Of a stretch of DNA of 64,000 bases, positions 9,331 through 64,000 are shown in pieces. The translations under genes were made by a program, and so were the position numbers. Position 1 is the stretch's first letter, and every line of letters begins with the position of its first letter. A model generated the notes under the pieces. That model did not search any database. It saw nothing but the letters and a program-made list of their open reading frames with translations, and was not told where the DNA came from. The DNA is from Macrocystis pyrifera (lineage: Eukaryota > Sar > Phaeophyceae > Laminariales > Laminariaceae): contig JASSKH010000038.1 of NCBI GenBank assembly GCA_031763025.1, positions 3,513,001 to 3,577,000 on the forward strand, given 5' to 3'.

Positions 9331-9452
9331 CAGTACCTGGTACGTCATTTCAGCCGTTGGTACTCGTGGTACTCACGAAAACTCAGACATTTCAACACTT
9401 GGTACTCACTCGTAAAATGTCGCGAGAACTCACCCATTTCAGCGTCTGGTAC

Positions 9453-9572
9453 TATTACGGGGGTCCATAGTAAACAGGACCAAAGATTGTTAGTAAAAAT
9501 AGGAAAATATCTAAGTTTTGTGCGAACCGTAGGTCCTATTTACTTACTCTAGGTCCCCGTAATATTAATATT
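9453..9572. mobile_element. MITE A copy
   Basis: The ends are TATTACGGGGGTCCATAG and GGTCCCCGTAATA. It is in the opposite internal orientation to the 9223 copy and contains a small insertion in its right half. Confidence 0.9.
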
Positions 9573-10023
9573 GAAACTTTCGGGTATATCATACTCAGTC
9601 ATTCGAGCTTTCGGCACCCGTTGCACTGAGTACCGACGACCGGTACTATATTATTAACAAGAGTTTTCTGACGACCTTTGAACTACCATATTCCTTTTCC
9701 TCGCAATGGGTCCTCCATCCCGACCGTCCACAAAGCTCGCTGCCGTCGTAGCTAGTCCACGAAGAAAGTGATGAAAGTGCTGCCCGCTCCACCCCGAAGA
9801 AGGTGGCTGTCGTATGTATTTTTTATACCTGGTATTATGGAAATGAAAAAAAAACACAAAGACGCCAGAGCTGCGAGACCGAGGAATTTCGTCGAAACTG
9901 ATGTTTTTGCGATGATACTGATACTGCTGTGTGCTGCCTGTGATACCAGGTACATGAAGCAGTAGTAGTAGTAGTGCCGCTTGCCTCTATAGTGCCGGTG
10001 TGCATGCGCCAGCTAACAAAATA

Positions 10024-10692
10024 CCGGCACTATTTTTTTTATAAAGTTTGAAATACGTCAGCTGTGAGTTCGACTGATCAAATAGTAGACACTCAACTTT
10101 GCAAGCTGCGTAATATGTCTTGTCTATATTCCATTTTTACCGAATTTTACAAGTATTGTGATAAACCGAACGCGCGTATTCTGATAAACCGAACTGTAGC
10201 GGCAACCAATCGGTACTAATTACTCCGCACACTACGACCGACACTGGTGAATCCCGTCTGTGCTTCCTATGCGATTCCGCAGGCATTATACTGCTGTATG
10301 TAGCGGGGCAACCAGCAATATAGAGGGACCATTACTGCCGTACAGCAGTACTCCGATCGCGCGTTACAAGCCATAATGCATGAATGCAAAGGTTTCAACA
10401 TGTTGCAACATATCAATATCCCTTGTTCGGGTTATATAGTATCAGTGCGCAGAATGATTAGTTAAAATTGTCCTGTTGACCCGGGCAGCATCCAGGGGAG
10501 CCGCTGGCCTATATCTTTGACAAGGAATCACATATAGAATACGCGCGTTCGGTTTACCACAATAATTGTAAAATTAGGTAAAAATGGAATACAGACGAGG
10601 CGTATTACGCAGCTTGCAAAGTTGAGTATCAACTATTTAATCAGTCGAACTCACAGCTGACGTATTTCAAAATTTATAAAACCATAATGCCG
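10024..10692. mobile_element. Element D with long inverted arms
   Basis: The left arm (10024-about 10190) and right arm (about 10540-10692) are inverted copies of about 150 bp, sharing TTTGAAATACGTCAGCTG, GTGAGTTCGACTGAT and ACTCAACTTTGCAAGCTGCG. The right side, from 10387, matches the dispersed copies at 4866-5176 and 49053-49360. The middle, near 10194-10350, shares TAGCGGCAACCAAYCGG with 24366-24490. No protein is encoded. This is a foldback-type or composite element, and I cannot name the superfamily. Confidence 0.65.
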
Positions 10693-11388
10693 CAACAGGG
10701 GAGAGGGGATACCGTAACAACATACTGCTGTTGTAATGCTTGATTTATGCCGGGCTGAATTGAGATTGAAACCTGTGCGCTGTATAACATTGCCGGATGT
10801 AAATCGAAATACAGTACCGGGGTAAGTAGCAACAAATAGCACTCAGTGTTCCTTTTCGTCGATTGGTGATGAAGGACATGCAGGTGTGGTGGATGTCCTT
10901 CAACGAGCGTAGCCATGAACTCTGGTCGCGCTCGCCGTGGGATTTCTTTCACACATTGGCTGCAGGACAGATCACGATCTATACGATAGCTCATCTAGAT
11001 CCTACCAGAATAAATATGCTGTTCGGGGTGCTCACGCACTCGGTGCAGGGATTCATGTGTAACGGCATTCGGGAGTTCCACACAGGAAAAATGCGTGTTT
11101 TTGTGTGGAGCATTCAACGGGTTGTGACATGTCTTGTCCGCCCCTTACGTGACTTGTGACTTCCTTTGCTTGTGTGTTCCGCGTGGATAATATATTCATA
11201 CCCTGCGGGACTTCTATACCTTCGAGTGCCCGTCTATGGACCGACTTAGGCTCGGCCCACCATATCAGTGAGTGTGTCGTGTTACGATAATGTCGTGCAA
11301 CGAGACCCACCCGTATAACACAGTATCTAGTCGTCTCATGCACAAATCCCACGCGGGAAGCTCTGATCTACAGAGTGTACTTAGAGTC
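10693..11388. other. No gene recognised
   Basis: A 98-codon plus frame at 10863-11159 has a varied composition but matches nothing I recognise and overlaps an equally long minus frame. I do not call it. Confidence 0.35.
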
Positions 11389-12060
11389 TTTGCTGCAGAT
11401 CGTGCGGACTGTATTTATTAAGGCCACGCTGGCACCCAAGCGTCCCCTGGCCCCGGGGTTTCCGATGACTCTAACCTCTAGATTTTTTATCGGATCAGGA
11501 AAAAAAACATCGCTATTTTGACGCGCTGCGTTTAATAATAGTATGCTTTGATCTTGCTGCAGATCGTGCGGGCTGTATTTATGAAGGCCACGCTGGCACC
11601 CAAGCATCCCCTGGGCCCGGGGTTTCCGGCGACTCTAATCTCTAGATGTTTTATCGGAACAGGAAAAAAAAACATCGCTATTTTGGCGTGCTGCGTTTAG
11701 TAAACTTTGATCTTGCTGCAGATCGTGCGGGCTGTATTTATTAAGGCCACGCTGGCACCCAAGCGTCCCCTGGGCCCGGGGTTTCCGGTTACTCTAATCT
11801 CTAGATGTTTTATCGGAACAGGAACATACATTGCTATTTTGACGCGCTGCGTTTAGTATACTTTGATCTTGCTGCAGATCTCGCGGGCTGTATTTATCGA
11901 GGCCACGCTGGCATCCAAGCGTCCCCTGGCCCCGGGGTTTCCGGTGACTCTAATCTCTCGATGTTTTATCGGAACAGGAAAAAAAACATCGCTATTTTGA
12001 TGCGCTGCGTTTATTAATAGTATACTTTGATCTTGCTGCAGATCGTGCTGACTGATTTAT
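11389..12060. repeat. Tandem repeat, four 156-164-bp units
   Basis: TGCTGCAGATC recurs at 11391, 11555, 11714, 11870 and 12034. Each unit contains GCCACGCTGGCACCCAAGCG, CCCCGGGGTTTCCGG and TTTTATCGGAACAGGAAAAA. The fifth unit breaks off after about 25 bp. The units are about 90% alike, so the array is fairly young. Confidence 0.92.
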
Positions 12061-12245
12061 GTATTTGTTCAAGTTGAAACAACAAAAACAGCTAGCTTGG
12101 AGATCGAGGATTTCGTCGAAGCTCTCAATGCATGTTTGCAAGCTCTCTGTGTGTCATACTATTAATGTTAATAACAGCAGTACATGGTATGTATACTTGT
12201 ATGTGTCTGAGATCTATTTTTCTCCCGAAGATTCACGTGTATACC

Positions 12246-12715
12246 GTGAACTGCTACTCTGTCCCTAAATGTAAATACCGTTTTCATTGAATATTAGCAT
12301 TGATAAAGTCCTTATTTTTAGGGACATAGATCTGTCCCTAAATATAAGGACCGTTTTGAGTGAATATTAGTATTCAAGCGATCTTTATAGTTAGGGACAG
12401 GGTCAAACGTTCCTTATATTTAGGGACAGAGAAATGTAAAGACCGTTTTGATTGAATATTAGTATTCATAAAGTTCTTATATTTAGGGACATATGTCCCT
12501 AAATATAAGGAACGTTTTGAGTGAATATTAGTATTCAAACGATCTTTATAGTTAGGGAGAGGTTCAAACGGTCCTACTATTTAGGGACAGAGCTCCGTCC
12601 CTAAATGTAAAGACCGTTTTGATTGAATATTAGTATTCATAAAGTCCTTATTTTTAGGGACAGGTTCTGTCCCTATTTAAACAGAAGGACCGTTTTGATT
12701 GAATATTGGTAGGGG
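12246..12715. repeat. Cluster of tandem MITE E palindromes
   Basis: About six units of roughly 70-90 bp follow one another. Each is a near-palindrome of the form TGTCCCTAAATATAAGGACC, a TTTTGATTGAATATTAGTATTCA centre, and the inverse of the start. The same family recurs at 12943-13205, in the 19.7-20.4 kb array and singly at 46 and 48 kb. Confidence 0.85.
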
Positions 12716-12942
12716 GATGGAACGTCGATGAGGAATAGAATATATTACACTGGTAGCTAAAATGAAATGCTATGGGGAATGGGAATTTGGAAACGACTGG
12801 CAGAGAAGTGGGTGAGGGATACTACTACTGATTTACGGAAGGATATTTGGTTTATATAGGAACGGCATCTATCTACGCTATTTTGGCAGAAGGCAAGCAT
12901 AATAATAATAATACTGGTATCCAAGCATTCGTTACATTTAGG

Positions 12943-13205
12943 TTCTGTCCCAAAATGTATGGGCCGTTTTGGTTATATATTGGTATTCAAACAGTCCTTA
13001 GATTTAGGGACAGAGCTCTGTCTCGAAACATACGGACAATTTTTGTTGAATATTAGTACACAAACGTTCCTTACATTCAGGGACATAGCTGTGTCCCTAA
13101 ATACAAGGACCTTTTGCATTGAATGTTAGTATTCAAGCGGTATTTATGTCCCTGAATATAGGGACCTTTTTCACTGAATATTAGTATTCCAACCGTATTA
13201 TATAG
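12943..13205. repeat. MITE E cluster, three diverged copies
   Basis: These copies share TGTCCCTAAAT, GGACCTTTT, TGAATATTAGTATTC and the inverse end TTAGGGACAGA with the cluster at 12.3 kb. They are separated from it by about 230 bp of other sequence. Confidence 0.8.
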
Positions 13206-13311
13206 TGAACTAGGGGTAGGGATTTGACCTGTCCGATGTGTCCCTAGATATGTACGCACTGAAACGAGGAGATCTGATCTGTGATATGTCTTTAAAAAGA
13301 TCTGCAGCATT

Positions 13312-13420
13312 GTTACGGGGGGCCGTAGTAAATAGGATCAAATATTGTTGGTAAAAATATTGAAAATATATGGGTGTTTGTCCATACCGTAGGTCGTATT
13401 ATCTATGCTCCCCCATAATA
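13312..13420. mobile_element. MITE A copy
   Basis: It starts TTACGGGGGGCC and ends CCCCCATAA. The interior has CAAATATTGTTGGTAAAAAT. Several substitutions are present, including a damaged right TIR. Confidence 0.85.
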
Positions 13421-13455
13421 GTAAGTATTTATACAATAGCGAATAGGGGGATCTG

Positions 13456-13930
13456 ATGTAGTCTGTTCCATGCATGAAAAATCTTTCATACCTCAGGCAG
13501 ATCATCGTCGATTCTCACTTGATGATCTATATCATGATCTGTCCAGTGGATACTGCTCTGTTCAGTAGATCATGATCTGTCCAGTAGATAATGATCTGTT
13601 CTGTAGATGATGATTTGCCCAGTAGATAATGATCTGTTCAGTAGGTCATGGTCTGTCCAATATATCATGACCTGTTCAGTAGATAATGATCAGTGCAGTA
13701 GATAATGATATGCTCGGTAGATAATGATCTGTCCAGTAGATCATGATCTGTTCAGTAGATAATGATCTGTCCAGTAGATCATGATCTGTTCAGTAGATAA
13801 TGATATGCTCAGTAGATCATGATGTGTCCAGTAGATCATGATCTGTTCCGTAGGTCATGATCTGTCCACCTGTCCAGTAGGTCATGATCTGTTCCGTAGA
13901 TAGACCATGATCTGTCTATTCGAGATTTGT
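13456..13930. repeat. GATC-rich minisatellite, period about 22 bp
   Basis: About 18 units of the form CCAGTAGATCATGATCTGTT follow one another, with ATAATGATCTG variants. The flanks (CAGGCAGATCATCG before, GTCTATTCGAGATTTGTG after) resemble the ends of the dispersed GATC element at 46137-46421, so this may be an expanded interior of one copy. Confidence 0.85.
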
Positions 13931-14050
13931 GAAAGCTCTTCTGAACGCGCCGGAAAGGAATGCAGCGAAAACCACTCATCGACCAGATCGCGACGAGCAT
14001 CGTCGGAGACACGGACGCAGGCGGCTACCATGCGTGACCCAAAAGCCGGT

Positions 14051-14312
14051 CGCCCCGGCGGTCTAGTGGCTTAAGCCTCGAAAACTACTAGAGGTCGAAG
14101 GCCAGGGTGTTTTTTAGCCCTTCCGTGGGTTCTTTGGTTCGAACAATATCGACTGCTGAGAGCGCATAGCGTAGGCATATATAGGAACACTTCGACGCGA
14201 CTCGGACGAGAGATGAAGGAAGTGCTGAACCCTCCTCGAGGTAAAAAAATGAAAGGCGCGTACGTATAGTGGGGAGGGAGGAGGAGGAACTGCTGTGTGA
14301 CCCTGGATCTGA
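14051..14312 (+). repeat. SINE S2, diverged copy with tRNA-like head
   Basis: The head GCCGGTCGCCCCGGCGGTCTAGT matches the head of the S2 copy at 31078, with an A-box-like TGGTCTAGTGGC motif. A degenerate B box (GGTTCGAAC) lies at 14140. The body keeps AAGTGCTGAACCCTCC and a TGTGTGACC block. The poly-A tail is not clear. Confidence 0.6.
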
Positions 14313-14654
14313 GCTATGCCCATTTATTTACACAGGAAAGAGAGAGAAAAAAAAAGGCGAAAACTATTGAATGAGGTGGAAAAAAAAGAAGAAAATAGAC
14401 GAGAAAAAAAAAAACCCAGCAGCAGCGATTTTCCAGATTATCTCGGCGGTGGTCACCAAGAAGTAAGTCGCGATTTTCAGCGACGGGTGCACTTTTGCTG
14501 CTGCGAAAAACTTGCTCTACAAGTGGCTGCTGTTACGGGAGGCCTAATGTTGTAAGCAGGACCCACGATGGAACCAAGATCCACAGGCATTCCCTACGCT
14601 AAGACACCATTTTTCGGTTTTGATTTCTACTGCATAATAATTTCCCGGAGTATA

Positions 14655-14689
<35 letters not shown>

Positions 14690-14780
14690 GGGAGGAGCTG
14701 GAGGGCAGAGGGGTGATTTGTAGATGTGGAGTACCACAGGACTATCGACGATTTAGAATTCGGAGTTTTTCAAAATCTCG
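14313..14780. other. No gene recognised; 32-nt poly-G
   Basis: This stretch is purine-rich at 14330-14430 and has an uninterrupted run of 32 G at 14657-14688. The tract fits the homopolymer tails described for the LINE and S3 families, but I see no element attached to it. Confidence 0.5.
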
Positions 14781-14960
14781 CGGGTTGGGTTGGGTCGGGT
14801 CGGGTCGGGTCGGGTCGGGTCGGATCAAGAGGTTTTTAAATCTTACGGCCCGGATCGGGTCGGGTCCGTCAAGAGGTTTTCCAATCTCACGGATTGGTTC
14901 GCGGGTCGGTTCACGGGTCAGGTCGGGTCGGGTCAGGTCGCGTCGGGTCTGATCAGGAGG
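14781..14960. repeat. (GGGTC)n minisatellite, partly degenerate
   Basis: GGGTCGGGTCGGGTC units at 14790-14820 continue in degenerate form to about 14960. GAGGTTTT-containing spacers (14829, 14873, 14957) divide it into units of about 45-85 bp. Confidence 0.85.
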
Positions 14961-16279: not shown

Positions 16280-16342
16280 ATATTATATGCAGGTTTGGTT
16301 GGCGTCGGTTAGCACTGCACTGTAAAACATGCCGCTCACAAT

Positions 16343-17425: not shown

Positions 17426-17463
17426 ACCGAGGCAAACATTTTTTTTCTGCCACGAGTAGGATA

Positions 17464-17578: not shown

Positions 17579-18529
17579 CTGCACATACGTGGTATGAATA
17601 GTCATAGTATTACTACTGCTGTACACCGTAAAACGAGCAATTTTTTGTTTTGTTTTAGTTTCTCTCCAAAAAAAAACCACAACCAACCGCTGCATCTTTG
17701 GGGCACCGTTCGTTGCATTTTACGTTGTGACACAGGCGCTACATACGTGTATACTACACGTCGCACCATGCCCCCACACGACGCCCTAACAAAATCTCAA
17801 CGGCAGCACAGCCAGCCAGCCAAGCCTCCCGTCCCCGTGCTGCGGAAACGATCCCACTAAATCCATGTGGTTTGGTGTCAACAAAAACGTGGGGGCCCCG
17901 GGCACTGGGAGGCAAAACTGACCCTACGCTGAATCCAAGTAATTCGTTACCAAAAACGTGGGTGTGCAGTTCTATAAAAACCTATCATTTGCTGCGGAAA
18001 ATAAAAAAGAACGATGACCCTACACTATATTGGGGATGACACCTATTACTGCAGAAGCCAGTATCATCTAGTCGCTGCTGCATAACACAAGGCTACCAGG
18101 TACTCCTGTAGCAACCATAATTTAGGTATACACCCATCTCATACAAGCAGGTGTTTACAACAGTATACAAGAACAGAACGATTCTATGTTCGTTATTTTG
18201 TTGTCCTGTACGTGTTGAATCCACTCCTTGGATCTCATGCGGTAGGTACATCATGTACATTGTGTTTGTTCCCAATAGCAACACATCACCACTTGATGTT
18301 GCATGTGTTTCTTTTGGAGAAATTTTAGCAAGTAACGCAGAGTAAGAAAGTGTATGCTTAACGGGAGGAGGTATTAAGGATGATTTGTCAGTAGCCATCA
18401 TAGTCGTTACTCGATAACACTTGCGTCATCTGGTATACATTTACGCATTTCTCCAAAAGAAACAATCCAAGTAATCAAGGGGGGCATGAAGCCATTCTTT
18501 TCACTATCATCGCGTTTTAGGCCTGTTTT
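17579..18529. other. No gene recognised; one dispersed repeat fragment
   Basis: At about 17875-18030 two units of the 19.3-kb tandem family appear (ACCAAAAACGTGGGTGTGCAG, GCTGAATCCAAGTAATTCG). Elsewhere only short frames are present. Confidence 0.5.
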
Positions 18530-29029: not shown

Positions 29030-29171
29030 GTACTCATTTGTTGCTTGCCTTAGTCATTTGACCATTGACCACGCATCCCTTTCGAGACGGAGCACCTTTC
29101 CTACTCCTAATAGAGACACCTCCAACCATTGGGCGCTCATTACGTTGTTTCCATATATTACATACCTGGTA
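29029..29171 (-). repeat. LINE 3' end, 5'-truncated, bounded by poly-C
   Basis: On the minus strand this encodes the end of the LINE protein: NIWKQRNERPMVGGVSIRSR, KGAPSRKGCVVNGQMTKASN, then K and a stop (TGA). It is followed only by GTACG and a 29-nt poly-C (29000-29028). Its 5' edge abuts another poly-C (29172-29183), and a TACCAGGTA lies exactly at this junction. The copy at 61447-61583 has the uninterrupted sequence CTATGTAATATATGG here. Confidence 0.9.
29163..29171. repeat. TACCWGGTA footprint-like motif in a LINE end
   Basis: The minus strand reads TACCAGGTATGTAATATATGG (split here as TACCAGGTA plus TGTAATATATGG). The LINE copy at 61450 has CTATGTAATATATGG. The difference is exactly CCAGGTA inserted after TA, a 5-bp core plus a TA duplication. 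Confidence 0.75.
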
Positions 29172-32173: not shown

Positions 32174-32310
32174 CTATTACGGGGGACCACAGCAGTAAAC
32201 AGGACCAAATATTGTCGGTAAAAATAGGGAAATTTAGGCTTTTTTTTTTTCAAAAATGTGGTATGCCATACCAGGTATGGTCCTATCAACCATGGCCCCC
32301 CGTAATATTA
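32174..32310. mobile_element. MITE A copy carrying a TACCAGGTA insertion
   Basis: It runs from TATTACGGGGGACCACAG to CATGGCCCCCCGTAATA. In the right arm, where other copies read CCATAGGTCC, this one has CCATACCAGGTATGGTCC (32269-32277), that is an extra CCAGGTA with one further base change. A poly-T expansion lies at 32241-32250. Confidence 0.88.
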
Positions 32311-32516
32311 CACGCTCGTGTTGACTAACGGGTGGGACCCGTGAAAAAAAATGCATGCTATATCTAAAGCAGTAGCACAGGCTTCCTTCCTTCCTGGGTT
32401 GGTTGGACCTGTGCTGCCTGCCGCGCCCCCCGCGAGAAATATTTACCAGGTACTGGTATAAAACTAGAAAACCCAACACCTGAGAGATCGAGGACGATTT
32501 GGTCGGCCCTACCGTT

Positions 32517-32740
32517 CCGGGGGACCATAGTAAACAGAACCCATGGTATTAACTTAACCCCGTTAGTACTGCAGTCCCGTTCTCGGGACAAACCACTCTA
32601 ATTTCAAGTGATTTGTCCCTAAAACGGGACTGCGGTACTAACAGGGTTAAGACAAAAACCTACCTGGTATATATTTACCTATTTTTACCCACAATATTTG
32701 GTCCTGTTTGCTATGCACCCCCCCCCCGTCATGCGCGTAT
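32517..32740. mobile_element. MITE A with nested MITE B and a footprint
   Basis: MITE A (32517 to about 32740) is interrupted by a complete MITE B (32554-32650, TTAACCCCGTTAGTACTGCAG to GTACTAACAGGGTTAA). Beyond it the MITE A interior carries an inserted CCTGGTA (TACCTGGTA, 32661-32669). Removing both gives the standard MITE A order. Confidence 0.88.
32661..32669. repeat. TACCWGGTA footprint-like motif in MITE A
   Basis: This copy reads AAAACCTACCTGGTATATAT where at least ten other copies read AAAACCTATATATTT. Deleting CCTGGTA restores the common sequence exactly. This is the cleanest filled/empty comparison in the window. Confidence 0.85.
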
Positions 32741-37214: not shown

Positions 37215-37287
37215 CTAGAATTTTAACAATCAAGCGCACGCCGTCGAACCTCATTCTCTCACGCAGCAGTACCACCAGGTTAGGTAC
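37215..37287 (-). CDS. Candidate exon F (partial gene)
   Basis: On the minus strand GTGTACCAG precedes and GTGAAAG follows 73 nt encoding VPNLVVLLRERMRFDGVRL and IVKIL. The composition (Leu/Val/Arg) is that of an ordinary helical protein segment. It exits in phase 1, which joins in frame to candidate exon B (first two bases AT). The acceptor overlaps a TACCTGGTA motif (37285-37293), so the splice site could have been affected by it. The family is not recognised. Confidence 0.35.
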
Positions 37288-37499
37288 CTGGTACACTGTT
37301 GTACAACACCAGCACACGGGAGTAAACATCAACGCCTCCTTATATCTTGATGGTCTCCCTTTTCAATATGCGGCACCCCCGGGATTTGAAGCAAGCCATT
37401 TCCAAAGGGGGCACCTTGTATATAGCAATCATTACATGTGGTGTTTTTTAGAGGTACGACCCCCTGCCCTGCCCCTCTCCCCCCCCCCCTACCAGAGGT

Positions 37500-38722: not shown

Positions 38723-38867
38723 GATACCAGGTACCAGTACCACTGTCCCGGAATATAATCACCATTTGGCTTAACAATCAGTGTAAAACCGGGTGCTTAT
38801 ACTATGGGACAGGGTGGTGTCGGAATATGTACCACTCTGTCCGAAATATAGGAAACATTTCTGTGCT

Positions 38868-39361: not shown

Positions 39362-39972
39362 TATGTAATACTATACCTGGTATATTACTATGCCCCCCCC
39401 GCAATACTAATCAAGGAGGAAAACAGAAAAAAAAGGCGTTCTTCAGGTGGGATTCTCGGAAAGAGGCCAGAAAAATGCCGAGGGAGGTCATGTAAGCAAG
39501 TCTTCCTACGAATGGCTTGTCTGTCGCGAATGTCGAAACTCGCTGAGCAGGATATCTGTAACTGCCTTCGTCCAGTTGTGTGCCGCGCGTCCATGCGTTG
39601 GTGGATGGCGGGACAGTACACTGATGGAAACACGATGAAAACTGCCCACAAAAAAGCGGCAGCAGTAGGTACAATACGTACGTGATGCATAAATCAAGAA
39701 AACTGTTACACTATACGAAGAAAAGAAAAAAAAATCGAAGCTGTGAGATCGAAAATCACGAAAAACTCCTCTTTTTGCACAACCTGCACGACCTACAGTA
39801 CGTAAGGAATGTTTCCTGTCGGACGAAAAATCTGTGCTACGTACGTACACAGATCTTGCACAATATCTCACAGACGGCAGGTTAGGATCTAGATGACCTC
39901 CCGTAGACAGATAAGACAGATCATGATCTGTCCCGACTTGAGCAAATAAATGTCAACAAAAGGTCTTCTCAC

Positions 39973-48345: not shown

Positions 48346-49052
48346 GTGCTATTGATAGTGTACTCTTTTGCTGCTGTTGGTGCATGTGTCAGTTGTTGTT
48401 GCTGGTGTTGTACCAGCCTTTAAATAAAAAGTATGTTGTACGCACCACACTGACAGGAACTGCGGAGAACGCTGCTTCTTAGCGGTGTGTGGGTGCGCGC
48501 AGGGCGGCCGTCTTGCCCTCGCCCTGTGCCTCGTAGAATTTTATTGTTGAAAACTTGAAAACTTGGCCGCACGCGTGGCTTTCTGGACTATATACCTCTC
48601 ACCCTACTGCTCTACCTGGTACATACATGGTACCACAGACTGAGAGATGCCTTTCGTAGGTAGGTACTGCTGGGTGTGTACCACTACCGATGCTGCTGTT
48701 TTTGTTCCGAGTCAACCGGTACACGTAAGGGAATCACAGTAGCAAGATGATAAGCTGCACCCGTGTGAGAATGAATGCATGCATGTTGTTAGAGTTAGCG
48801 TTAGTTTGAGCGTCTCGAACGCGGAAGGAGCCGACCTTATACTCGTACGTACATACCAGGTAGCAGGGTATAGCTGGGTATGGATTGCTATTATCGTTAT
48901 TAATCATGCCGCCTTCCTTCATGGAACCCACTCTCGCCGCGAAAATAATCCACGTTTATGTATTCAGCGGGCACTATATTTTTGAACAGCGTAATTAGTT
49001 AGTCGTATGGTATGATGTACAGCAGCACAAGTTTACGTTGACGTACTATTTT

Positions 49053-49360
49053 GAAAGGTTTCAACATGTTGCAACATCATATCAATATCCCTTGTTCGGG
49101 TTATATAGTATCAGTGCGCAGAATGATTATTTAAAATTGTCCTGTTGACCCGGGCAGCATCCAGGGGAGCCGCTGGCCTATATCTTTGACAAGGAATCAC
49201 ATACCAGTATAGAATACGCGCTCGGTTTATCACAATACTTCCTTGTAAAATTCGGTAAAAATGGAATATAGACGAGGCGTATTATGCAGCTTGCAAAGTT
49301 GAGTATCAACTATTTAATCAGTCGAACTCACAGCTGACGTATTTCAAAATTTATAAAAAA
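49053..49360 (+). repeat. Dispersed element D, copy 3
   Basis: It is about 93% alike to 10387-10692 by eye (GGTTTCAACATGTTGCAACA through CAGCTGACGTATTTCAAAAT). One difference is a CCAGTA insertion at 49202-49209. Confidence 0.9.
49202..49209. repeat. TACCAGTA insertion in element D
   Basis: This copy reads AATCACATACCAGTATAGAA; the copy at 10524 reads AATCACATATAGAATACG. Removing CCAGTA restores the empty site exactly. It is a 4-bp-core variant of the TACCWGGTA motif. Confidence 0.75.
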
Positions 49361-49737
49361 TGTATTCCCGGCCAGCATGATATACTGAAAATAGTGTTCT
49401 TTGAGCAGCACAAGTAAAGCAGTACCACAGGTACCCACGTACTTGGAAGCATTAAATTTTGTGCTCAGCAAAGAACACCACTGACTCTACAACTGTAGTA
49501 GTACCTCTGGTAAATCCTACCCACCACCAGGTACCTGGTACATAATAGAGCCCATCCATGTATGTGTTCAACGTGGACATCACAATAAGGCAGGAGCCTT
49601 ACGTAGCCACGACAGGGGATTCTTAATCGCTGTCGCCTACTACTGCCGTACTTCACCGTGCCGTAGGTACGTCCAGGCACCCTGTATGTATGTATGTACC
49701 TGGTACCTGGTATGAGCTCCCAAGTAGGGAGTAGGTT

Positions 49738-50058: not shown

Positions 50059-50389
50059 GGGGACGGTGTTAGCTACCCCTACAGCAGTGCCGCAGAGGCC
50101 GTGTGTCTTATGGAGACCAAAACGTCCTTATCATTATGTCCAGAGCGATGAGCGTGACAGTCATCGCCACTTGCTAGCCAAGTGCCTACGTTGTATATAT
50201 CTTCCCCTCTACCAACACGGTATGGCCCTGTTGGCGTGTACATATATACCTGGTATGACAGGCGACAAAGCGTGGACGGCGAGCAGAAATAAAAATGTCC
50301 CCACAGCTCAGAAGTTCGCTCAAGATGCGTACAACCAACAGGACGAGACGAGCAGAGAGGAACTTGGAGAAGAGAAGGGTAGATATAGT

Positions 50390-54906: not shown

Positions 54907-55344
54907 CTATCGTTCCTGCACAAACCAAATTTCCATAAAACCGAATCGCTCCAGCGCGGACTTGGTGTAGTCCTCCTGGTCGATTGTAAGCGTCCTTTCG
55001 GCACGGTTGCGGGTGACCTGCAGCCCAAGTACACGCGACACATCTCCCATGTCAGTCATCTTGAACCTGTCCATGAGCTGCGCCTTGATCTTCTCGATTA
55101 CTTCGATGTTGCCACCAATCACGAGTAGATCGTCCACGTACAAGGTGAGGATGACGGTGACACCCCCATGCTGGTATATGTAGACATAAGTGTCGGACTT
55201 CAGCGGGATGAAACCGATGACCTTGAGGACGGGATCAATGGTATGGAACCAGTTCCCGGGGCTCTGAGCTAGCCCATAGAGGCTTTTCTCCAGCCTCATG
55301 ACCAGAGGGCCTCCATCCTTGTCCTTGGTCTGGTAGCCAGGTGG
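54907..55344 (-). pseudogene. pol: Copia reverse transcriptase, C-terminal part
   Basis: This continues in the same frame as the integrase-RT frame after one TAG (55345-55347). It reads PPGYQTKDKDGGPLVMRLEK, SLYGLAQSPGNW and LYVDDLLVIGG, the YVDD catalytic box of reverse transcriptase. It ends QEDYTKSALERFGFMEIWFV, then a stop. Only about 170 bp separate this from the polypurine tract, so the RNase H domain that should follow is missing. The element cannot be autonomous. Confidence 0.9.
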
Positions 55345-57324
55345 CTAAGCCTCAAATACTTCCTCTTGAATGTCGGCATACAGAAAAGCAGTTTTCACGT
55401 CCAGCTGAAATACCTCCAGATCCAGCTCCGCTGCAATTGCTAGCACCATTCGGATGCTTTGCAGACGGCAAACCGGAGCAAACGTACTGCCGCAGTCCAG
55501 GCCCGGAACCTGGTTCCAGCCTTGAGCCACAACCCGCGCTTTGTATGAGTTATCAGCTTTACGCTTCAGAACCCACCTGGAGTTGATGACTTTCTGTCCC
55601 GGAGGAACAGATGATCGCGGTACCAGCTTGTACACTCCTAGTTCGTTCAGACTGGCCATTTCTTTGTCCGCGGCAGCTCCCCAAAACTTAGCGTCTGGAA
55701 GCTTCATGGCTTCAGCATATGACTTGGGGACTCCCGGCTGCATGGTCTGTACAGCATACGCGTACTCCACGAATCTAGACATGCCGTTCTTGTGAGATAC
55801 GTCCTGGCACTCCCCTTTCGTGATGTACGCAAAGCCGAGCCGTCTCAGTTCGCTAAGTGTTCTGGCGTTAGGTTGGCTTGAGGCAGATCTGGTCACGGCC
55901 GGTGTAATGGCGCGACCTCCGCGCGACGCAGAACCACCACGTGAAGAACCACCACGCGAAGAACCACCACGCGAAGAACCTTCACGCGAAGACCCTCCAC
56001 GCGAAGAACCACCACGCGAAGAACCACCACGCGCAGAACCACCAGGCGTAGCACCAGACGGCGTAGATCCCGATGGCGAAGCGGAAGGGCTCACTCCCCC
56101 AGGCGAAGCAAGCGGGGTAGGAGCAACAGGGCTAACGCCAATATCGCGATCGGTGACATCACGGATTTGTTCCAAAAAGTCGGTCACTAACGGCTCTGCA
56201 GCGTCCAGGTTAGGAGAAGGCGAACCGATATCTTGATTAGACGTGTATTCACGCACATCCCTTACCAATTCGTCACTTTCGTCGTACGTGAACTTGCTGT
56301 TGTCGAAACCACCGACCTCCACGCGAGGCAGTGCAGAGGGCGTCTCAATGAAGACAACATTTCGACTCTCTCTGACACGTTTCGTCGCTGGATTGTAGAC
56401 CCGGTAAGACTTGCTGTCTGTGCTATATCCAACCAGGCGTCCTTCCCAAGCACGCGGCTCCAATTTCTTGGTGTGGGTCTCTACGTGTACAAACGACCTA
56501 GCCCCGATAACTCGAATGTTCCCGAGGTAAGCATCGTTGCCGTAGAGTGCCTTGTAGGGCGTACCGTTGCTCAGCGCCGCATGTGGGACCCGGTTGCTCA
56601 GGTAGACTGCAGTCAGCATCAACTCCCCCCAGAGAAAACTCGGGAGACCCGAATCAGCAAGCAAACAGCGCACGATACCAGCAAGCGTTCGACCTGCCCG
56701 CTCGTTTGCGCCGATCTGCTGAGGGGTATTGGTAGAAGCAAACTCCAACTTGACGCCGATGTTTAGACAGTACTGGCGGAACTCCTCACTCGTAAACTCC
56801 GTACCTTTGTCCCCTCTCAGGCGGACTAAACGCTCTCCGGACGGAATCACGACGGCCTTGTTGAACAGCACGAGGGAGTCGATGGTGTGTGTCTTGCTCT
56901 TGATGAGGTAAATCTCCTTCCACTTCGTCAGCTGATCAACAAACTTGGTGACGTAGGTGTAGCCGCCCAGTGCCGGAGGGTTGATCGGTCCCATGGTGTC
57001 AACAGAGACATGTTCAAACGGCCGCTGGACGTCATACGACGCTTGTTTTGGGTGGGGTTGCTGCTCACTCTTGCCGAATGGGCAGACGTCGCACGGCGTC
57101 AGGTCACCGTTGTACTCAACACCGCTGTGCGGCATCTTCCGAAGAACTTCCATGCTGTTGCGGTTGGCATGCCCCATGCGACGGTGCCACAGGTCAGCAG
57201 AAACCACCTTTAAGGCAGCACCGCTAGGCTTCACGGAGGTACCAGCACGGTTTTCGATCGCGACAGCGATGGAGCACATGATTTGTCCGGTCGTTGCGTC
57301 GACGCCTAGAGTCTTCATCGGCAC
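55345..57324 (-). pseudogene. pol: Copia integrase and reverse transcriptase, N-terminal part
   Basis: 659 codons are open. The HHCC zinc domain is H47, H52, C78, C81 (LWHRRMGHAN...CDVCPFGK). The integrase core is D109 (VSVDTMGP), D172 (RLRGDKGTEF) and E208 (IGANERAGRT), the D,D(35)E pattern. A linker with seven RGGSS-type repeats follows. The RVT_2 region then begins (MKLPDAKFWGAAADKEM; KARVVAQGWNQVPGLD; FQLDVKTAFLYADIQEEVF). The frame closes at TAG (55345-55347), where EQPPGY is expected in the family, so a CAG to TAG change is likely. Integrase inserts the cDNA; reverse transcriptase makes it. Confidence 0.95.
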
Positions 57325-57750
57325 AACGAGGTCGCCCTTTTCGAACCTCGGTTCTCCGGGTAGAACAGTGCTGCCATCCCCTCCACCATGGCCATGGAGA
57401 CGGAAAACAGGTTCGTTCCCAGCCCAGGGACGATGATTGTACGAAAGGAGAAATCCTGGTTGTTCCCACCATCATCGGTAATGGTGACGTTGACGGTGCC
57501 TGCAGCTACCTCGTACAGGGTGTGCTTTCCAGCTGCGACGATCTGGTGGGGAACCTGAAGAGGTTCATAGTCCCGCATTGAGGCTAGCAGTCCCGGGGTC
57601 AGCTCCGGATCGACGAAGTTGAATGATGCCCCGCTGTCCACCAATAGCTCAATGTAGATGCCGTCGGTACGAAGCCCACCTTCACCTGACAGGTCAGGAG
57701 TGCTCGCCATGAGCGCTCGAAAAAACCCCTTCGGGTAGACGGTAGGTCGG
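57315..57750 (-). pseudogene. pol: Copia protease region
   Basis: On the minus strand FFRALMASTPDLSGEGGLRT leads to IELLVDSGASFNFVDPEL, with the DSGA active site of an aspartic protease, and ends near IIVPGLGTNLFSVSMAMVEG. It is in a different frame from both the gag segment and the integrase frame. Copia elements normally have a single frame, so indels at about 57.7 kb and 57.32 kb have probably broken it. Confidence 0.88.
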
Positions 57751-58683
57751 TTGTGATGCCGCCTGAGCAGACGCAAGTTCCCCCGATTCAGCCCCGGATT
57801 CCGCGGTGGGAGCCCCATGAGAAAGCGTGGCCGCCGCTGGCAGGGGCACTCCCATCGCGGTGAACGAGTAGCCAAAACCGTTTTGTGTCTGCGGAGGAGG
57901 CGGAGCCACGGGTGCGCACCCGACATGAGCGAAACCAACAGCCGCCGACTGTGGTTGAGGAAGAGCGGCGGGGTGAGCGCTCCCGACATGAGCGAAACTG
58001 CACTGCCCCGGAGACTGCAGCATCGCCAGGCGTGCAGTCAGCGACTGGATCTCTCGCTGAGCCTTGCACTCGTTGTCGCTGTGGCTGGTAGTCTTGTGAT
58101 AGCTGCACCACTTTGGAGACGGGTCGCCGGCCTTCTTGCCCTTGTCCTTCCACCGCGACTTTCCCGACTTCGACCGGCTCTTCTTGGCTGGCTTAGGGCA
58201 ATCTCGCTGGAAGTGTCCGTACTCGTTGCAGTTGTGGCACCGGTCTTTGCTGGTCGCGGCCATTGCCGCACCACGGCCGGAGACTGCGGGCCCCGACGAC
58301 TTCCTCGATTGTGCGTCGATAAAGTAATTCACAGCGGTTCGCTTTATTTCCTTGACATTTGGAAACGGTTGCCGGTAATGCATGTCCCGCATGAAGCTGT
58401 AGTCCGACGAGTGAACGAGAGCGTTCAACACTACGTCCTCGAACGTCTCCTCCGGCGTGGTCTCACCCATATCTTCAAGCCGAAGTTTTAAGTCGTCCAT
58501 GGTTGCCAGGAAGTCGATGACGTTCTGACCGTGTCGGAGCTTGGCAGAGTGGAGTTGCTCCCTGAGGGCTCGCCGGGATTCTTTTGTGTTTCCGGCGAAG
58601 CGTTCCTTCAGGGCCGCCCAAGCCGCAGCTCCATTTCCCATTTCACCCCCAGTCTTCCCTTGAAAAGGTTTCGTGGTATTGTT
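57694..58683 (-). pseudogene. gag: Copia gag, central and C-terminal part
   Basis: From NTTKPFQGKTGGEMGNGAAA the segment runs through the UBN2-type Gag core (WAALKERF...REQLHSAKLRHGQNVIDFL) to the zinc knuckle CHNCNEYGHFQRDC and a second Cys/His cluster (WCSYHKTTSHSDNEC), then a Pro/Ala-rich tail. The knuckle binds element RNA. The first codons come directly after a duplicated RT piece, not after Gag residues; the missing start of Gag is at 53101-53370. Confidence 0.9.
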
Positions 58684-58978
58684 AGCACCATTCGGATGCT
58701 TTGCAGACGGCAAACCGGAGCAAACGTACTGCCGCAGTCCAGGCCCGGAACCTGGTTCCAGCCTTGAGCCACAACCCGCGCTTTGTATGAGTTATCAGCG
58801 TTACGCTTCAGAACCCACCTGGAGTTGATGACTTTCTGTCCCGGAGGAACAGATGATCGCGGTACCAGCTTGTACACTCCTAGTTCGTTCAGACTGGCCA
58901 TTTCTTTGTCCGCGGCAGCTCCCCAAAACTTAGCGTCTGGAAGCTTCATGGCTTCAGCATATGACTTGGGGACTCCCG
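58684..58978 (-). pseudogene. Duplicated copia RT fragment at the element edge
   Basis: These 295 bp repeat 55442-55736 almost perfectly (I see one difference, Lys to Asn in VLKRNADNSYKARVV). The fragment ends at ACTCCCG, where LINE sequence resumes, and joins gag at GTGCTAAC, a few bases of which also occur at the gag break at 53.1 kb. It is a recent duplication produced during rearrangement. Confidence 0.9.
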
Positions 58979-59796
58979 ATAGTAATTCGAAGGGGAAAAG
59001 GGAAGTACTAGTAGAGCATTACCGTAAGCTAGGAACACCCACAGCCAACGAACGTTCGACGCAGAATTCGAGAAGGAAATCAACGCGTGGGCAGAGGCGA
59101 ACGTAGACACATCAGAAAGGGAAGACAGTGGTTCGGGAGGGTTACAGAGAAAGTTCACAAGGGAAGAAGTAAAGAAGTGTGTAGCTAAACTTAAGAATAG
59201 AAAGGCAGCAGGGGCAGACCAAATAGTGAATAAATTTGTGAAGTACGGGGGAGAAGGAATGCTTACCATGATGATTGTGTTGTATAACTGGAAATGGAAA
59301 AACGAGTACGCACCTAGGAGGTAGAGAGAAGGAGCAGTAGTAAACTTATTCAAGAAAGGAGATAAGGCGGACCCGGGGAACTATAGAGGGATAACGCTAT
59401 ACTAGGCACAGCCCGCAGGCCAAACATTTTGTAAGATTTTGAACAATAGAATGGGAACGATGATGGAGAAGGAAGACAAAATAAGCGAAGGGCAAGCAGG
59501 GTTTAGGCCAAACCGTAGCTGCGTAGACCATGTGTACACCTTAGGTAATATTATTCAACGTAGGAAAGACGCGGGACTAACAACGTATTGTTTCAATCTA
59601 GATGTGCAGAAAGCCTACGACACAGCAGTATGGAGAAATGGATTGTGGGAAAAACTGTGGAAAATAGGAATCAGAGGAAAGATGTGGAGAATGATGAAAA
59701 ATATGACGGAATGTGTGCGAGAAGGGCTGTGATGCTGGACGGGGAAATATCGAAATATGTTGGTATTTTACAAGGAGTTGCACAGGGATGTACGTT
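58979..59796 (+). pseudogene. LINE reverse transcriptase, N-terminal half
   Basis: Segments in shifting frames read KREVLVEHYRKLGTPTANER, KNRKAAGADQIVNKFVKYGG, GAVVNLFKKGDKADPGNYRG and GQAGFRPNRSCVDHVYTLGN, then LDVQKAYDT and GILQGVAQGCT. These are the conserved RT blocks 0-4 of LINEs. Stops include TAG after YAPRR and after GITLY, and a frameshift near 59033. At QGCT the frame is split by a SINE and continues at 60117 with SPNLFKIY. Confidence 0.92.
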
Positions 59797-60116
59797 TGTT
59801 ATAAGGATCGATCTTTGACTCCCATAGCTCAGTAGATAACTCGTTCACATTTGACGTCGTCCAGGTCACGGGTTCGAACCTCACTTCGAACGTTTCTTCT
59901 ATTATAGAAAACGCTTGCGAGTGCCTAAAAAACAAAACATATCTCCCTGGTTCCCCAGGTATTGAACGAAGCGGGCGGGTCAGCGTACAGACGTATACGG
60001 TTCTGACGTCCCAAAGATCCCGCCGTTGAGAGGGGGGGAGAGTGTTGTAAAGATTACCCTGGGCTGGGTAATCGATCGGTCTTTTACCCCTATAGCTCAT
60101 TAGGTATCACGTTCAC
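59797..60116 (+). repeat. SINE S1 inserted in the LINE RT region
   Basis: The SINE has CCCATAGCTCAGTAGATAAC (A-box type) and CACGGGTTCGAACCTC (B box). Its body ends GAGAGTGTTGTAAAGATTAC, then CCTGGGCTGGGTAATCGATC and the start of a second head, CCTATAGCTCATTAGG. Removing it joins TGTACG to TTGTCACCTAAC, restoring QGCTLSPNLFKIY. ACGTT at both edges (59792-59796, 60117-60121) is a likely target duplication. Confidence 0.9.
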
Positions 60117-61583
60117 ACGTTGTCACCTAACTTATTCAAGATATATACCTGGTATATACTAATGGCCTGATAGTAGCAGTCGAGGCAGCAAGGCAGGGAG
60201 TCACGGTAGGGGAAGATACGGTGTCGGGATTGATGTTTGCGGATGACTTCGTGGGGATATCAGAAACACCCGAAGGATTGCAGGAACAAACCAGAGAAGG
60301 CGCTAGAATACACCAGGAAATGGAGGGTGACGGCGAACGTCAAGAAATGCGCAGTAGTTGTTAGTAACGAAGATAAGGTAAACCCGGTAAATTTCGGTTG
60401 GAAGTGGCGAGAAGATGAATTGCCGATCGTAGACCGGTATACATACCTTGGCGTAGAGATATCAAAATACTGCTCTTGGGATACACATATAGCAAAAGTA
60501 GTAGGAAAGGGTAAGGCACAAGCAGGCAAGATGGATGCGATCCTAACAGACTCGCACCTTGACATTAGGATTAAGAGATGTATCCTGATGAATTTGATAG
60601 TACCGAAACTAGAATATGCAGGAGAAGTATGGGAAGAGAACGCGAAACTCGTAAAACAGTTGGAAACAGTACAAACGACGGCAGCTAAAAAAAAACTAAG
60701 ATGCCCAAGTACGACTAGCAATACAGTATTAAGAGCAGAACTGGGAATGCACCCACTCAAGCCAAATAGAGGCATGAGAAAGTTGAACTGGCATTATAAA
60801 GTAAGGAACATCCCAAAAAAGAGGTTGCCAGCCATAGTTGATAGATGAGCTGCATGGGAGAAAGTAACAAAAGGGCGAGCTGGAATAAGGCGGGATGGCG
60901 TAATTGAGAAAGTTTGGAAGGATGTAGGGGGAAACTAAGAAGGGATGATGTCCGCCGAGAAGTTTTGGAGGTACAAGGCAGAAGCAGAAGACAGGATAGA
61001 AAGAAGGGAAAGGCTAGCGCTAAGAAAGAAGGTGGAATCGGAAAAACACTTAGAGATATAAGGGGGATTGAGGAAAGGAATGGGAATGAAAACGTATTTG
61101 CGTGGCCCAATGGACTTCGCGAAAACGCTGAAACTGCGTGTTCGTGTAGGAGACCTGGACCTGCCAGAAAGAAGAAAGAGGTATACCAGTAGCCGGGAGG
61201 AGGAGGAAGTAGATGCACAGATGTGCCCGTGTGGCAAAGCAATAGAGTAGAACTCACACAGTAGGAGAATGTGAAATATACAAGGAGGAACGGGATGTGT
61301 TAGAAGGGGAGATGAGGAAAATAGACGAATGTGACATGGAGGAGTTTGATACAATGAATAACAGCGAGAAAACGATCGCTATCCTAGGAGATGGATGGTG
61401 GCCACAGGCGGCCAGACAGGAAGGGGATAAGGTTAGCAAAAAGTTTCTATGTAATATATGGAAACAACGTAATGAGCGCCCAACTGTTGGAGGTGTCTCT
61501 ATTAGGAGTAGGAACGGTGCTCCGTCTCGAAAGGGATGCGTGGTCAATGGTCAAATGAGTACAGTAAGGCAAGCAACAAATGA
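60117..61583 (+). pseudogene. LINE reverse transcriptase, C-terminal half and tail domain
   Basis: SPNLFKIY is followed by a disturbed stretch with a TACCTGGTA motif (60146-60154), then VSGLMFADDFVGISETPEGL with the FADD catalytic box. The next frame reads ALEYTRKWRVTANVKKCAVV and the YLGVEISKYCSWDTHI region. A CPCGKAIE...RTHTVGEC motif is a C-terminal zinc knuckle. The end is NIWKQRNERPTVGGVSIRSR and GAPSRKGCVVNGQM, with a TGA at GCAACAAATGA just before GTACG. Several stops and frameshifts make it inactive. Confidence 0.92.
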
Positions 61584-61608
61584 GTACGCCCCCCCCCCCC
61601 CCCCCCCT
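61584..61608 (+). repeat. LINE 3' tail: GTACG plus poly-C
   Basis: The coding end TGA is followed by GTACG and about 18 C. There is no poly-A or other 3' UTR. The same tail follows the minus-strand LINE ends at 29, 41.7 and 51 kb. Confidence 0.9.
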
Positions 61609-62440
61609 GGATGTATTAACCCCCTCCATACATACATACATACATGACCCCCCCCCCCCGAATACATTAACGCCACATTCAATACTTAACAACCGCTTTT
61701 TGCATCATCACTAATGGTGTACGTACACAGACATCGCGCATACATTCCGACTAGTTCTGGTATGCATTACAAGTGAAATATGTAATGTACTTGCGCTATA
61801 TACATATATGCAGTACGTACCAGTATGATATAACCGGTACAACAAGTAGTCTGGTTACGAGTACCGCGCTGCTGCGGTGGCTTATGCCGCTATCACGTGT
61901 ACCTCTCAGGTAGTGTTTATACAGCAGTAGTAGTACCTTTCTTTGGAGCTGTGGGTGTCTTGTCGAAGTAAGTTTAGTGGACTGACCAGGACTCAGTGTC
62001 CTTTTCCAACGTTAGCACAAGACTTTGTTGCAGCCGCAGCAGTGGGCAGTATGCATCCATGTCAGAGCATGTCACAGGGGAAGTCTTCGAGATGTGACGG
62101 GTAGTAGTACTGCTGCGTACTGCCTGGTACAGCGCCGGGGTACCGCAACAAGCGATTGATCCTCTTCGGCATGTGTTTGGGACCCCGAGAAAGATATCGA
62201 CCAAACCAGTGATAACACTGTAACTTTGGCGATTTCACCCCCGTCTAGGAGGAGCAGCGCGACCGCCTGGCGGTAAGGGTAGGACCGTGTTGCGCCCCGT
62301 GCCGTACGCCTCCTGCATTTGTAAAACTCGGACAACATTTTGAATCATCCCCAATCAAGCAGTGGTGGCCGTACCTCGCTGTAATCAATCATTCGTCTCT
62401 TTTTTAAGGCCAAGTTTTCTCATATGAAGTCCCAAGAGGC
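61609..62440. other. No gene confidently recognised
   Basis: A second C-rich run (61647-61660) follows (CATA)n. A minus frame of 88 codons (62072-62338) has varied composition, including TARGATRSYPYRQAVALLLL, but I recognise no family. Confidence 0.4.
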
Positions 62441-62475
62441 AAAGATCCCTTCTCCTAGATTGCTAAACCTACTCC
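62441..62475. repeat. Single arm of the repeat flanking the telomere-like array
   Basis: AAAGATCCCTTCTCC, AGATTGCT and AAACCTACTCC match the inverse of 49727-49762. The homology extends past the 28-bp inverted repeat into its outer flank. Confidence 0.75.
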
Positions 62476-64000
62476 GAGTCACCAGACATTTCGGTACCTG
62501 GTATTCTCTATGAGGCTGAACATGTTCGCTTGAGGAGCTGTCCATCATGCCACCCAGCCTGAAAACAAAACGCGTGCCACGACGAGGGTAGCACTCCTTC
62601 TCCAAAATGTTTATGACTGTCCGTGGGACTCCTTTAACCCAATAATATCATCGGCAGAATGTCATCAGAGTGTTTTTCGTTAATATTTCGACATACACTT
62701 ACTATTCGTAGCCTGCAGGGTCGTTTTTTTCGGGCAGCACTTTTTTTTCAAGCTTTTCTCACCATCAGTTTTTGGGTGAGTTATAGAATAGAGCCGCCAT
62801 AGAATCATAAAAGCAAGATTTTCTCACAGTAAACTTCAGATAATCTTATTAATAGATGCTACCCCAACAAAGAAACACGTGGAGGAAACGAATCAAGATG
62901 AGAACAATCCCAAGGGCTCATCCCACGGTGGGTAGTAGGCCTTGCGCTGTTTTGTACCAGGTGGTCTATGGCTCAATACTTTCTGACCGGTTGAGCTCCT
63001 CCAGTGACCAACTACCGGTTAGCGTCATACTTTTACTTAAAAAGTAGTATACCAGGTACCTCTTTTGTATCACGAGTCATGATTCCAGCATACTCCACCG
63101 GTCCGCACATCTCCGTCCCAAGCAGCGCTCCATGCTACTAAGCATTTTCTAGAGGCTGCCATGCTGTACGCTTACTACGTACCGTGCTGGAAACTGTGAT
63201 CACGACAGACTGTGGGCCGCTGCTGCTGTTGCCTATTTTTGCTGGAAACGTCCCTATTTTGTTGTGTCGGTACCATGTGGATGGTAGCGTCAACCCCGTC
63301 TGCTCTCTCTCTCTCTCGTGGGCTGAGTATAAATACATCTGAAATAGGCTATTAATACCAGGCATGATACACAGCAAACACTCGTTACATCTGTGCTTCG
63401 TTCAAGAATGTGTTGAGGGAGAGAAACACTCGGGAACAACAGGGGCTCTACTGTATATAGGTACATACAGTGGCGTAGGTGTGGCGCCTACTTTTTCTCA
63501 GGTTCCTAATGTATAAAAACAAAGCTGAGTGGATACTATCACCGTGGCCCCTAATATATAGTCCCAAAACGGGGGGAGAGAGGCTTCCCAATGTATTTAT
63601 GAAGAATAATAATGTAGTATCGATGGGGACCCTACCATCAACCACACCTTTTCCACAGACGACATTTTCGATGCACGGGGTGGTTCTTGATGTACACGCA
63701 CCAAGGTGGGCGTTCCGGGAATATCATGGGCTTATTCACCATGGGCTTCCGTGATATTGATATAACAATGAGTCAGTATTCCCATAGCCTAATGTCATGG
63801 TGCCTCATAGAGGGGAGGACACAGGGATGTCGACGCTGGCCTGAGCACACGTCTTCTTGGTAAAGCTCTTCTTGTTGCTTATCTCATGGCGAGCTCAATT
63901 AGGGTACAGGAACAGAGTGAGATCGAGAGGGGATAGTTAAGTACCAGACTGTCCCCTGAAATATGCATCTTCACATATGTACCATCTACTGAGACGTTTC
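62476..64000. other. No gene recognised
   Basis: Unique-looking sequence with only short frames. TACCWGGTA motifs are at 62495-62503 and 63050-63058. A short (CT)n is at 63301-63317. Nothing else could be supported. Confidence 0.45.

What the first reader, a model, noticed from the sequence alone, without database searches (positions are those of the whole stretch)
9334..63058. TACCAGGTA/TACCTGGTA is an inserted 9-mer, about 40-fold over-represented
I located 20 exact copies of TACCWGGTA: 9334, 9826, 9944, 18094, 29163, 32269, 32444, 32661, 37285, 38725, 39374, 48613, 48854, 49532, 49697, 49704, 50247, 60146, 62495, 63050. Random expectation for the two 9-mers in 64 kb is about 0.5. Comparison with uninterrupted repeat copies shows that CCWGGTA was added at a TA: MITE A at 32661 against other MITE A copies, and the LINE end at 29163 against 61450. 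TACCAGTA at 49202 against element D at 10530 is the same with a 4-bp core. TACCGGTA also recurs outside the hAT-like element (19162, 44387, 44933, 45742, 46047). TA-core-TA with a central A/T ambiguity is what a TA-targeting transposon with ends of the type CC..GG would leave on excision, as with the TAC(A/T)GTA footprints of Tc1-type elements. No such element is seen in the window. It could instead be a very small inserted sequence or a binding site, but the filled/empty pairs favour insertion.
Basis: partly seen in the sequence, partly recalled or inferred. Interest (0 to 1): 0.88.

Follow-up and report, generated by a model that had tools for sequence, protein, structure and literature searches.

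The report
Kelp genome peppered with TACCWGGTA scars
A giant-kelp genome carries about 120,000 copies of one nine-letter palindrome that look like scars left when an unidentified jumping gene, which inserts at the letters TA, was cut out again.

Summary
All 20 copies are at the stated places (20 against 0.64 in shuffles). Genome-wide there are 121,279 sites against 2,421 for the reversed control. Assembly statistics point to Macrocystis pyrifera.

The motif is inserted. At one TA of an abundant MITE, 44,445 copies are empty. Of 79 copies with exactly a 5-bp core there, 18 are CCWGG and 2 CCSGG; most others look like local tandem duplications. Flanks of the motif give a two-sided target preference, WANNANR-TA-YNTNNTW, not seen in the other TA-core-TA motifs tested except weakly in CCAG. 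It predicted a hot TA in the MITE: 532 fills, 89 of the 100 listed being CCWGG, roughly 40-fold more per copy than at the poor site.

Best reading: excision footprints of a TA-targeting cut-and-paste transposon (Tc1/mariner/pogo-like behaviour) with ends 5'-CC(A/T)GG and a 5-nt stagger. The source was not found: no element in the fetched sample or at the MITE trap; DDE_3 gave no hit, Transposase_1 was uninformative, and 39 pogo-like DDE_1 hits could not be linked. Scar number, 5-bp core and missing source are the new points.

The parts
9334..9342 (.). TACCTGGTA scar
9826..9834 (.). TACCTGGTA scar
9944..9952 (.). TACCAGGTA scar
18094..18102 (.). TACCAGGTA scar
29163..29171 (.). TACCTGGTA at the end of LINE homology; not a clean filled/empty pair
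32269..32277 (.). TACCAGGTA scar
32444..32452 (.). TACCAGGTA scar sharing its right TA with a TACTGGTA at 32451
32655..32676 (-). MITE A copy filled at the hot TA (scar at 32661-32669); one of the 532 places
37285..37293 (.). TACCTGGTA scar
38725..38733 (.). TACCAGGTA scar sharing its right TA with a TACCAGTA at 38732
39374..39382 (.). TACCTGGTA scar
48613..48621 (.). TACCTGGTA scar
48854..48862 (.). TACCAGGTA scar
49202..49209 (.). TACCAGTA, 4-bp form of the scar, absent from the copy at 10462-10613
49532..49540 (.). TACCTGGTA scar
49697..49712 (.). double scar TACCTGGTACCTGGTA (starts 49697 and 49704)
50247..50255 (.). TACCTGGTA scar
60146..60154 (.). TACCTGGTA scar
62495..62503 (.). TACCTGGTA scar
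63050..63058 (.). TACCAGGTA scar

Best explanation
Each TACCWGGTA is the scar of one visit by a TA-targeting cut-and-paste DNA transposon that behaves like the IS630-Tc1-mariner group, pogo included. Insertion at TA duplicates TA. On excision the transposase cuts the non-transferred strand 5 nt inside each end, leaving TA plus a 3' overhang of the terminal bases CC(A/T)GG on each flank. The overhangs anneal through CC/GG around a central A:A or T:T mismatch, and host repair gives TACCAGGTA or TACCTGGTA. Less often the cut is 4 nt inside, giving TACCAGTA/TACTGGTA. Shown: insertion at TA, W centre, target preference, presence of near-match (decayed) copies. Weakly supported: common origin of the 4-bp form. 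Inferred: that a larger element came and left, the staggered cut, the mismatch repair, the superfamily.
For: 121,279 sites against 2,421 for the control. MITE site 1: empty 44,445, CCWGG 18 of 79 exact 5-bp fills. Two-sided target preference that predicted the hot MITE site: 532 fills, 89 of 100 listed CCWGG. Centre A/T in 76 sites, C/G in 5, in the 264-kb sample. TACCAGTA/TACTGGTA flanks lean the same way, and element D shows it as an insertion at TA. Double scars 4 against 0.23 expected.
Against: No element with CCWGG ends was found. Printed Tc1/mariner and pogo-like footprints are 0-4 bp, not 5. DDE_3 has no hit. At the hot site T outnumbers A 64:25 on the MITE strand (binomial p 4e-5), which random mismatch repair does not predict. 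Part of the 532 fills could be copies of an already filled MITE.
Confidence: 0.76

Rival explanations
1. Functional palindrome (protein-binding site, or an over-represented motif of the HIP1 kind) that arises by point mutation and is kept by selection or biased repair.
For: Exact palindrome, very many copies, sequence preference extends 7 bases on each side.
Against: It appears as a 7-bp insertion in MITE copies whose flanks are the same in the empty copies. Single-substitution variants are in excess (115 against 62.6), as expected if old copies decay.
Confidence: 0.04
2. Direct insertion of only CCWGGTA, with no larger element ever present: an enzyme adds a short palindrome at preferred TAs.
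For: No larger element was found anywhere examined.
Against: I know of no enzyme that does this (recalled, no call); excision footprints explain the same anatomy with known steps.
Confidence: 0.07
3. Programmed excision: the elements are still in the germ line or another life stage and are removed in the sequenced tissue, as ciliate internal eliminated sequences are.
For: Very many scars without elements.
Against: The published assembly is of a haploid gametophyte (passage). Decayed scars show that many are old and inherited. No such system is known to me in brown algae (recalled).
Confidence: 0.08
4. The fills are mostly copies of a few filled MITEs, so the target preference and counts at the MITE exaggerate the number of events.
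For: MITE A is very abundant (44,445 exact matches to one end motif); the fill rate at the hot site is high and T-biased; long flanks could not be read.
Against: Fills occur at two positions of the MITE with both centres and several flank variants; the preference matrix comes from 76 sample sites of which one is the hot-site copy at 32661; the genome holds 121,279 sites, far more than the MITE fills.
Confidence: 0.05

Closest known systems
Tc1/mariner excision footprints (Sleeping Beauty, ZB, Minos)
   Same: TA target, TA duplicated, terminal bases of the element left between two TAs, A/T ambiguity at the centre of an odd core, AT-palindromic target preference (ZB: palindromic AT repeat, PMC7913693 passage; TAC(A/T)GTA of Sleeping Beauty and the 4-nt scar of Minos recalled).
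   Different: Core of 5 bp; PMC7913693 gives 2-4 bp for Tc1/mariner and 0-3 for ZB. Extra preference at -6/-7. No element identified. Scar number far above any case I know (recalled).
pogo-like elements (Passer)
   Same: TA targeting group; footprints at the excision site; pogo-like DDE_1 transposase genes exist in this genome.
   Different: Passer footprints are 0-4 bp (PMC9976928 passage); no link between the kelp DDE_1 genes and CCWGG ends was found.
Stowaway MITE / Mariner-like excision in plants
   Same: 2-bp TSD, staggered cut inside the terminal repeat leaves TSDs plus element bases (PMC4561436 passages).
   Different: No MITE with CCWGG ends was found here; scars outnumber elements.
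Mariner-Tc1 families of Ectocarpus
   Same: TA-type elements in a brown alga, almost 12,000 copies, most of them non-autonomous (PMC12477816 passages).
   Different: The word 'excision' does not occur in that paper's main text; the ends of its elements were not available to me.

Membership tests
IS630-Tc1-mariner/pogo excision footprint | Insertion at TA with duplication of TA | tested here: met
   Empty TA against TA-core-TA at two MITE positions and in element D
IS630-Tc1-mariner/pogo excision footprint | Core of a few terminal bases, paired overhangs with a central mismatch resolved to A or T | tested here: met
   76 W-centred against 5 S-centred in the sample; 18 against 2. The overhang model itself is inferred
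IS630-Tc1-mariner/pogo excision footprint | Footprint length 2-4 bp (0-4 for Passer) | tested here: not met
   The dominant core is 5 bp; printed ranges from passages; the 4-bp form is weaker (27 against 13.8 expected)
IS630-Tc1-mariner/pogo excision footprint | AT-rich palindromic preference around TA | tested here: met
   prediction tested
IS630-Tc1-mariner/pogo excision footprint | An element with terminal inverted repeats beginning with the core and a DDE/D transposase | tested here: inconclusive
   None found; DDE_3 0 hits; Transposase_1 0 hits, but none in the controls either; DDE_1 39 hits, unlinked
Ciliate-type internal eliminated sequence | Programmed developmental excision of TA-bounded sequence | not testable with these tools
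   Would need another life stage or strain; in Paramecium excision leaves a single TA (recalled), unlike here

The most novel reading that the evidence does not exclude
A TA-targeting element in kelp is excised almost without exception, in the germ line or at a life-cycle stage, so that over 100,000 insertions survive only as 5-bp CCWGG scars: a self-erasing mobile element whose history is readable only in its footprints, with a transposase that makes an unusually long 5-nt stagger.
Probability: 0.15. Interest if true: 0.92.

Novelty: new variant of a known kind. Interest (0 to 1): 0.73.

Why it matters
Scaled from the sample, about 0.4% of all TA dinucleotides of the genome carry this one scar. 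If each scar records one insertion and excision, the set gives a target-site profile, a jump count and an age spectrum for an element not yet identified. It would also show that footprints can far outnumber the elements that made them, which matters for estimates of past transposition and of small-insertion mutation.

Tried and rejected
TA-flanked inverted repeats: a general search and a search for ends starting CCWGG (without L023) gave no element; the CCWGG pairs listed looked like chance (best 13 matched bases). L023 was left out because it holds an inverted duplication of about 2 kb (7833-9927), inside which any TA, including TA-CCTGGAGCATGCC at 8307/9453, has a mirror copy; I do not read that as an element.

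TACCAGGCTCTA in L008 and L020 lies in a longer stretch that is alike in both copies on both sides, judged by eye. A shared end, TACCTGGCAGTCCCGTTTCAT with seemingly different left flanks, looked like an element end, but the genome holds only 2 copies, in an 89%-identical duplication carrying a decayed scar. The duplicated blocks of C3 are 99.85% identical with no scar difference. An all-against-all gap scan of the fetched sequence recovered no CCWGG gap (little power). A flank-removal scan found a spanning hit for 6 of 76 sites and a clean empty for 1; of 1,045 control TANNNNNTA sites 292 had spanning hits and 22 'clean' ones, so this scan alone proves nothing. DDE_1 copies: three are over 98.6% identical over the whole 3.3 kb fetched, a fourth shares about 2.5 kb plus rearranged pieces; no ends seen. 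TACCGGTA as the same scar: rejected on flanks.

Paper searches: TACCTGGTA is in 109 papers, 20 listed, none with an alga in its title; a combined search for either string with kelp words listed 10 of 881 papers, with no occurrence of the strings in those 10; further searches on brown-algal or kelp transposons and footprints (lists only, apart from the papers named in the report). Any statement that this is not in print rests on these. Not run: strain comparison; tree of filled MITEs with long flanks.

Full report
Observation. All 20 coordinates are correct; 100 shuffles give 0.64 on average and never more than 3. The window is G000:C128:3513001-3577000 of a 537,376,219-base genome in 223 contigs, with 121,279 sites against 2,421 for the reversed pattern. 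The published giant-kelp assembly has 537 Mb, 223 contigs and 50.37% GC (PMC10498591, passages seen); my sample has 48.7% GC. I take the organism to be Macrocystis pyrifera; this rests on assembly statistics and was not tested by sequence. In a 264-kb sample (the window plus 20 stretches of 10 kb) there are 76 copies against 2.9 expected from a third-order Markov model. The sample is not random: 17 of the 20 stretches are on the window's contig, and the three on C1, C3 and C4 (11 copies) were picked where one search had listed hits.

Inserted, not ancestral. A search for exactly five bases plus TA added at that TA gives 79 places: CCTGG 11, CCAGG 7, CCCGG 2, near relatives CCTCG 2, CGAGG 1, CCAAG 1, CCTGA 1, and 54 others, most of which look like local tandem duplications (GTAAA 17; hand count, judged by eye). 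A gapped search at another position of the MITE shows CCAGG/CCTGG insertions among many AT-repeat length variants (66 places listed). In the window, element D at 49202 is a clean 6-bp insertion (CCAGTA) against 10462-10613, and 32661 has an empty relative. The LINE pair is not clean.

Target preference and a prediction. Flanks of the 76 sites (152 half-sites) depart from ordinary TA flanks at -1 (A/G), -3 (A), -6 (A) and -7 (A/T, G only 5%): chi-square 27, 16, 55 and 40 on 3 df. The motif reads the same on both strands, so the preference is two-sided: WANNANR-TA-YNTNNTW. The 4-bp form TACCAGTA/TACTGGTA (54 half-sites) leans the same way, but weakly (chi-square 7.3 at -6 and 6.2 at -7). CWG (247), CCGG (44) and CG (278) show nothing at -6/-7; CTCG/CGAG (106), CCG (194), CCCGGG (28) and TTAA (86) show moderate signals at -6 or -7, but towards G or T, not this pattern. 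Scoring the TAs of the MITE with this matrix put aaatata-TA-ggttttt at the 99.8th percentile and the first tested site at the 47th. I then searched the top site: 532 fills with exactly five bases, and 89 of the 100 listed are CCWGG (64 T, 25 A, hand count). The empty form was seen 14 times in the sample, which scales to about 28,500; the same scaling overstates the other site (61,065 against 44,445 counted). The fill rate is therefore roughly 1.7-2.3%, against 0.04% at the poor site. One of the 76 sites behind the matrix is the hot-site copy at 32661, so circularity is small. Part of the 532 may be copies of a filled MITE; I could not read long flanks to tell.

Centre and decay. The centre is A or T in 76 and C or G in 5 sample sites. 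Single-substitution variants total 115 against 62.6 expected, highest for TGCCAGGTA and TACCAGGTG. WANNANRTACCWGG not followed by T has 5,128 hits against 1,800 in the control; of the 100 listed, 36 continue CA and 21 continue N-TA, i.e. they look like decayed or one-base-longer scars (hand count). Many of those 100 are copies of a few repeats on small contigs; on C125 alone it is 17 and 7 of 36. In the sample 4 pairs of scars share a TA (0.23 expected), and 16 neighbouring pairs lie within 300 bp (8.1 expected, maximum 16 in 500 simulations); within 1,000 bp there is no clear excess (27 against 22). This is compatible with scars serving as targets and some very local jumping.

Mechanism (inference). 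With ends 5'-CC(A/T)GG, a cut 5 nt inside the non-transferred strand leaves two 3' overhangs that pair at CC/GG around a central A:A or T:T mismatch, giving CCAGG or CCTGG between two TAs. A 4-nt cut at a CCAG end gives CCAG or CTGG. The same logic gives the TAC(A/T)GTA scar of Sleeping Beauty (recalled). Printed footprints are 2-4 bp for Tc1/mariner and 0-3 for ZB (PMC7913693, passages), and 0-4 bp for the pogo-like Passer (PMC9976928, passages), so five is outside. Mariner-like transposases cut staggered inside the terminal repeat (PMC4561436, passages). The 64:25 bias at the hot site (binomial p 4e-5) is unexplained.

The source is missing. No TA-flanked inverted repeat with CCWGG ends and real terminal similarity lies in the sample without L023 (for L023 see Tried and rejected). 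At the MITE trap an intact insertion would read GGGGGNCCATACCWGGV, if the base after CCWGG is not T: 2 hits, one a decayed scar, one without MITE sequence beyond. One promising shared end was a segmental duplication. DDE_3 has no match. Transposase_1 has none, but none in the control genomes either, so it says nothing. DDE_1 has 39 matches, many without stops; one carries DDE_1 and HTH_Tnp_Tc5. Three copies are over 98.6% identical over all 3.3 kb fetched; a fourth, about 11 kb from a contig end, shares about 2.5 kb plus rearranged pieces; a fifth is 72% identical over 960 bp. Their ends were not reached, and no link to CCWGG exists. Mariner-Tc1 families are known from Ectocarpus (PMC12477816, passages). 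With no element seen beside 76 scars, elements are probably at most a few per cent of scars (rule of three, inference).

Verdict. The scar is real, inserted, TA-targeted and extremely numerous. It works like a Tc1/mariner-type excision footprint, but its length is outside the printed range and no element is identified, so I do not file it as a member of any named family.

Noticed in passing
G000, MITE A site GGGGGACCA-TA-GTAAATAGG: 708 short TA-core-TA insertions of 1-14 bp; among the 100 listed: CAG 8, CTG 7 (Tc1-type scar), TTAA 7, CG 5, CTGG 2, CCWGG 2. Several other TA-targeting elements may have left scars.
   Followed up: partly
L033, L034-L037; 39 places: Pogo-like DDE_1 transposase genes, most of the best-scoring ones without stops, on small contigs and chromosomes; three near-identical copies extend beyond the 3.3 kb fetched.
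   Followed up: partly
window 6463-7581: Open frames on opposite strands that read like histone H2A (6463-6984, minus) and H2B (7207-7581, plus), recognised by eye.
   Followed up: no
window 54907-58791, minus strand: Long open frames that read like a Copia-type retrotransposon (gag zinc knuckle, integrase, reverse transcriptase), by eye.
   Followed up: no
G000:C3:30001-50000 and 150001-170000 (L029-L032): Two blocks 99.85% identical over 19.8 kb on one small contig, perhaps a very recent or assembly-made duplication.
   Followed up: partly
264-kb sample: Other TA-bounded words far above expectation: TACCCGGGTA 14 against 0.4, TACAGCAGTA 35 against 0.9, TACGAGTA/TACTCGTA 53 against 10; repeat families were not removed.
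   Followed up: partly
MITE A hot site, 100 listed places: T outnumbers A 64 to 25 at the scar centre on the MITE strand, while the other site is 11 to 7; cause unknown.
   Followed up: no
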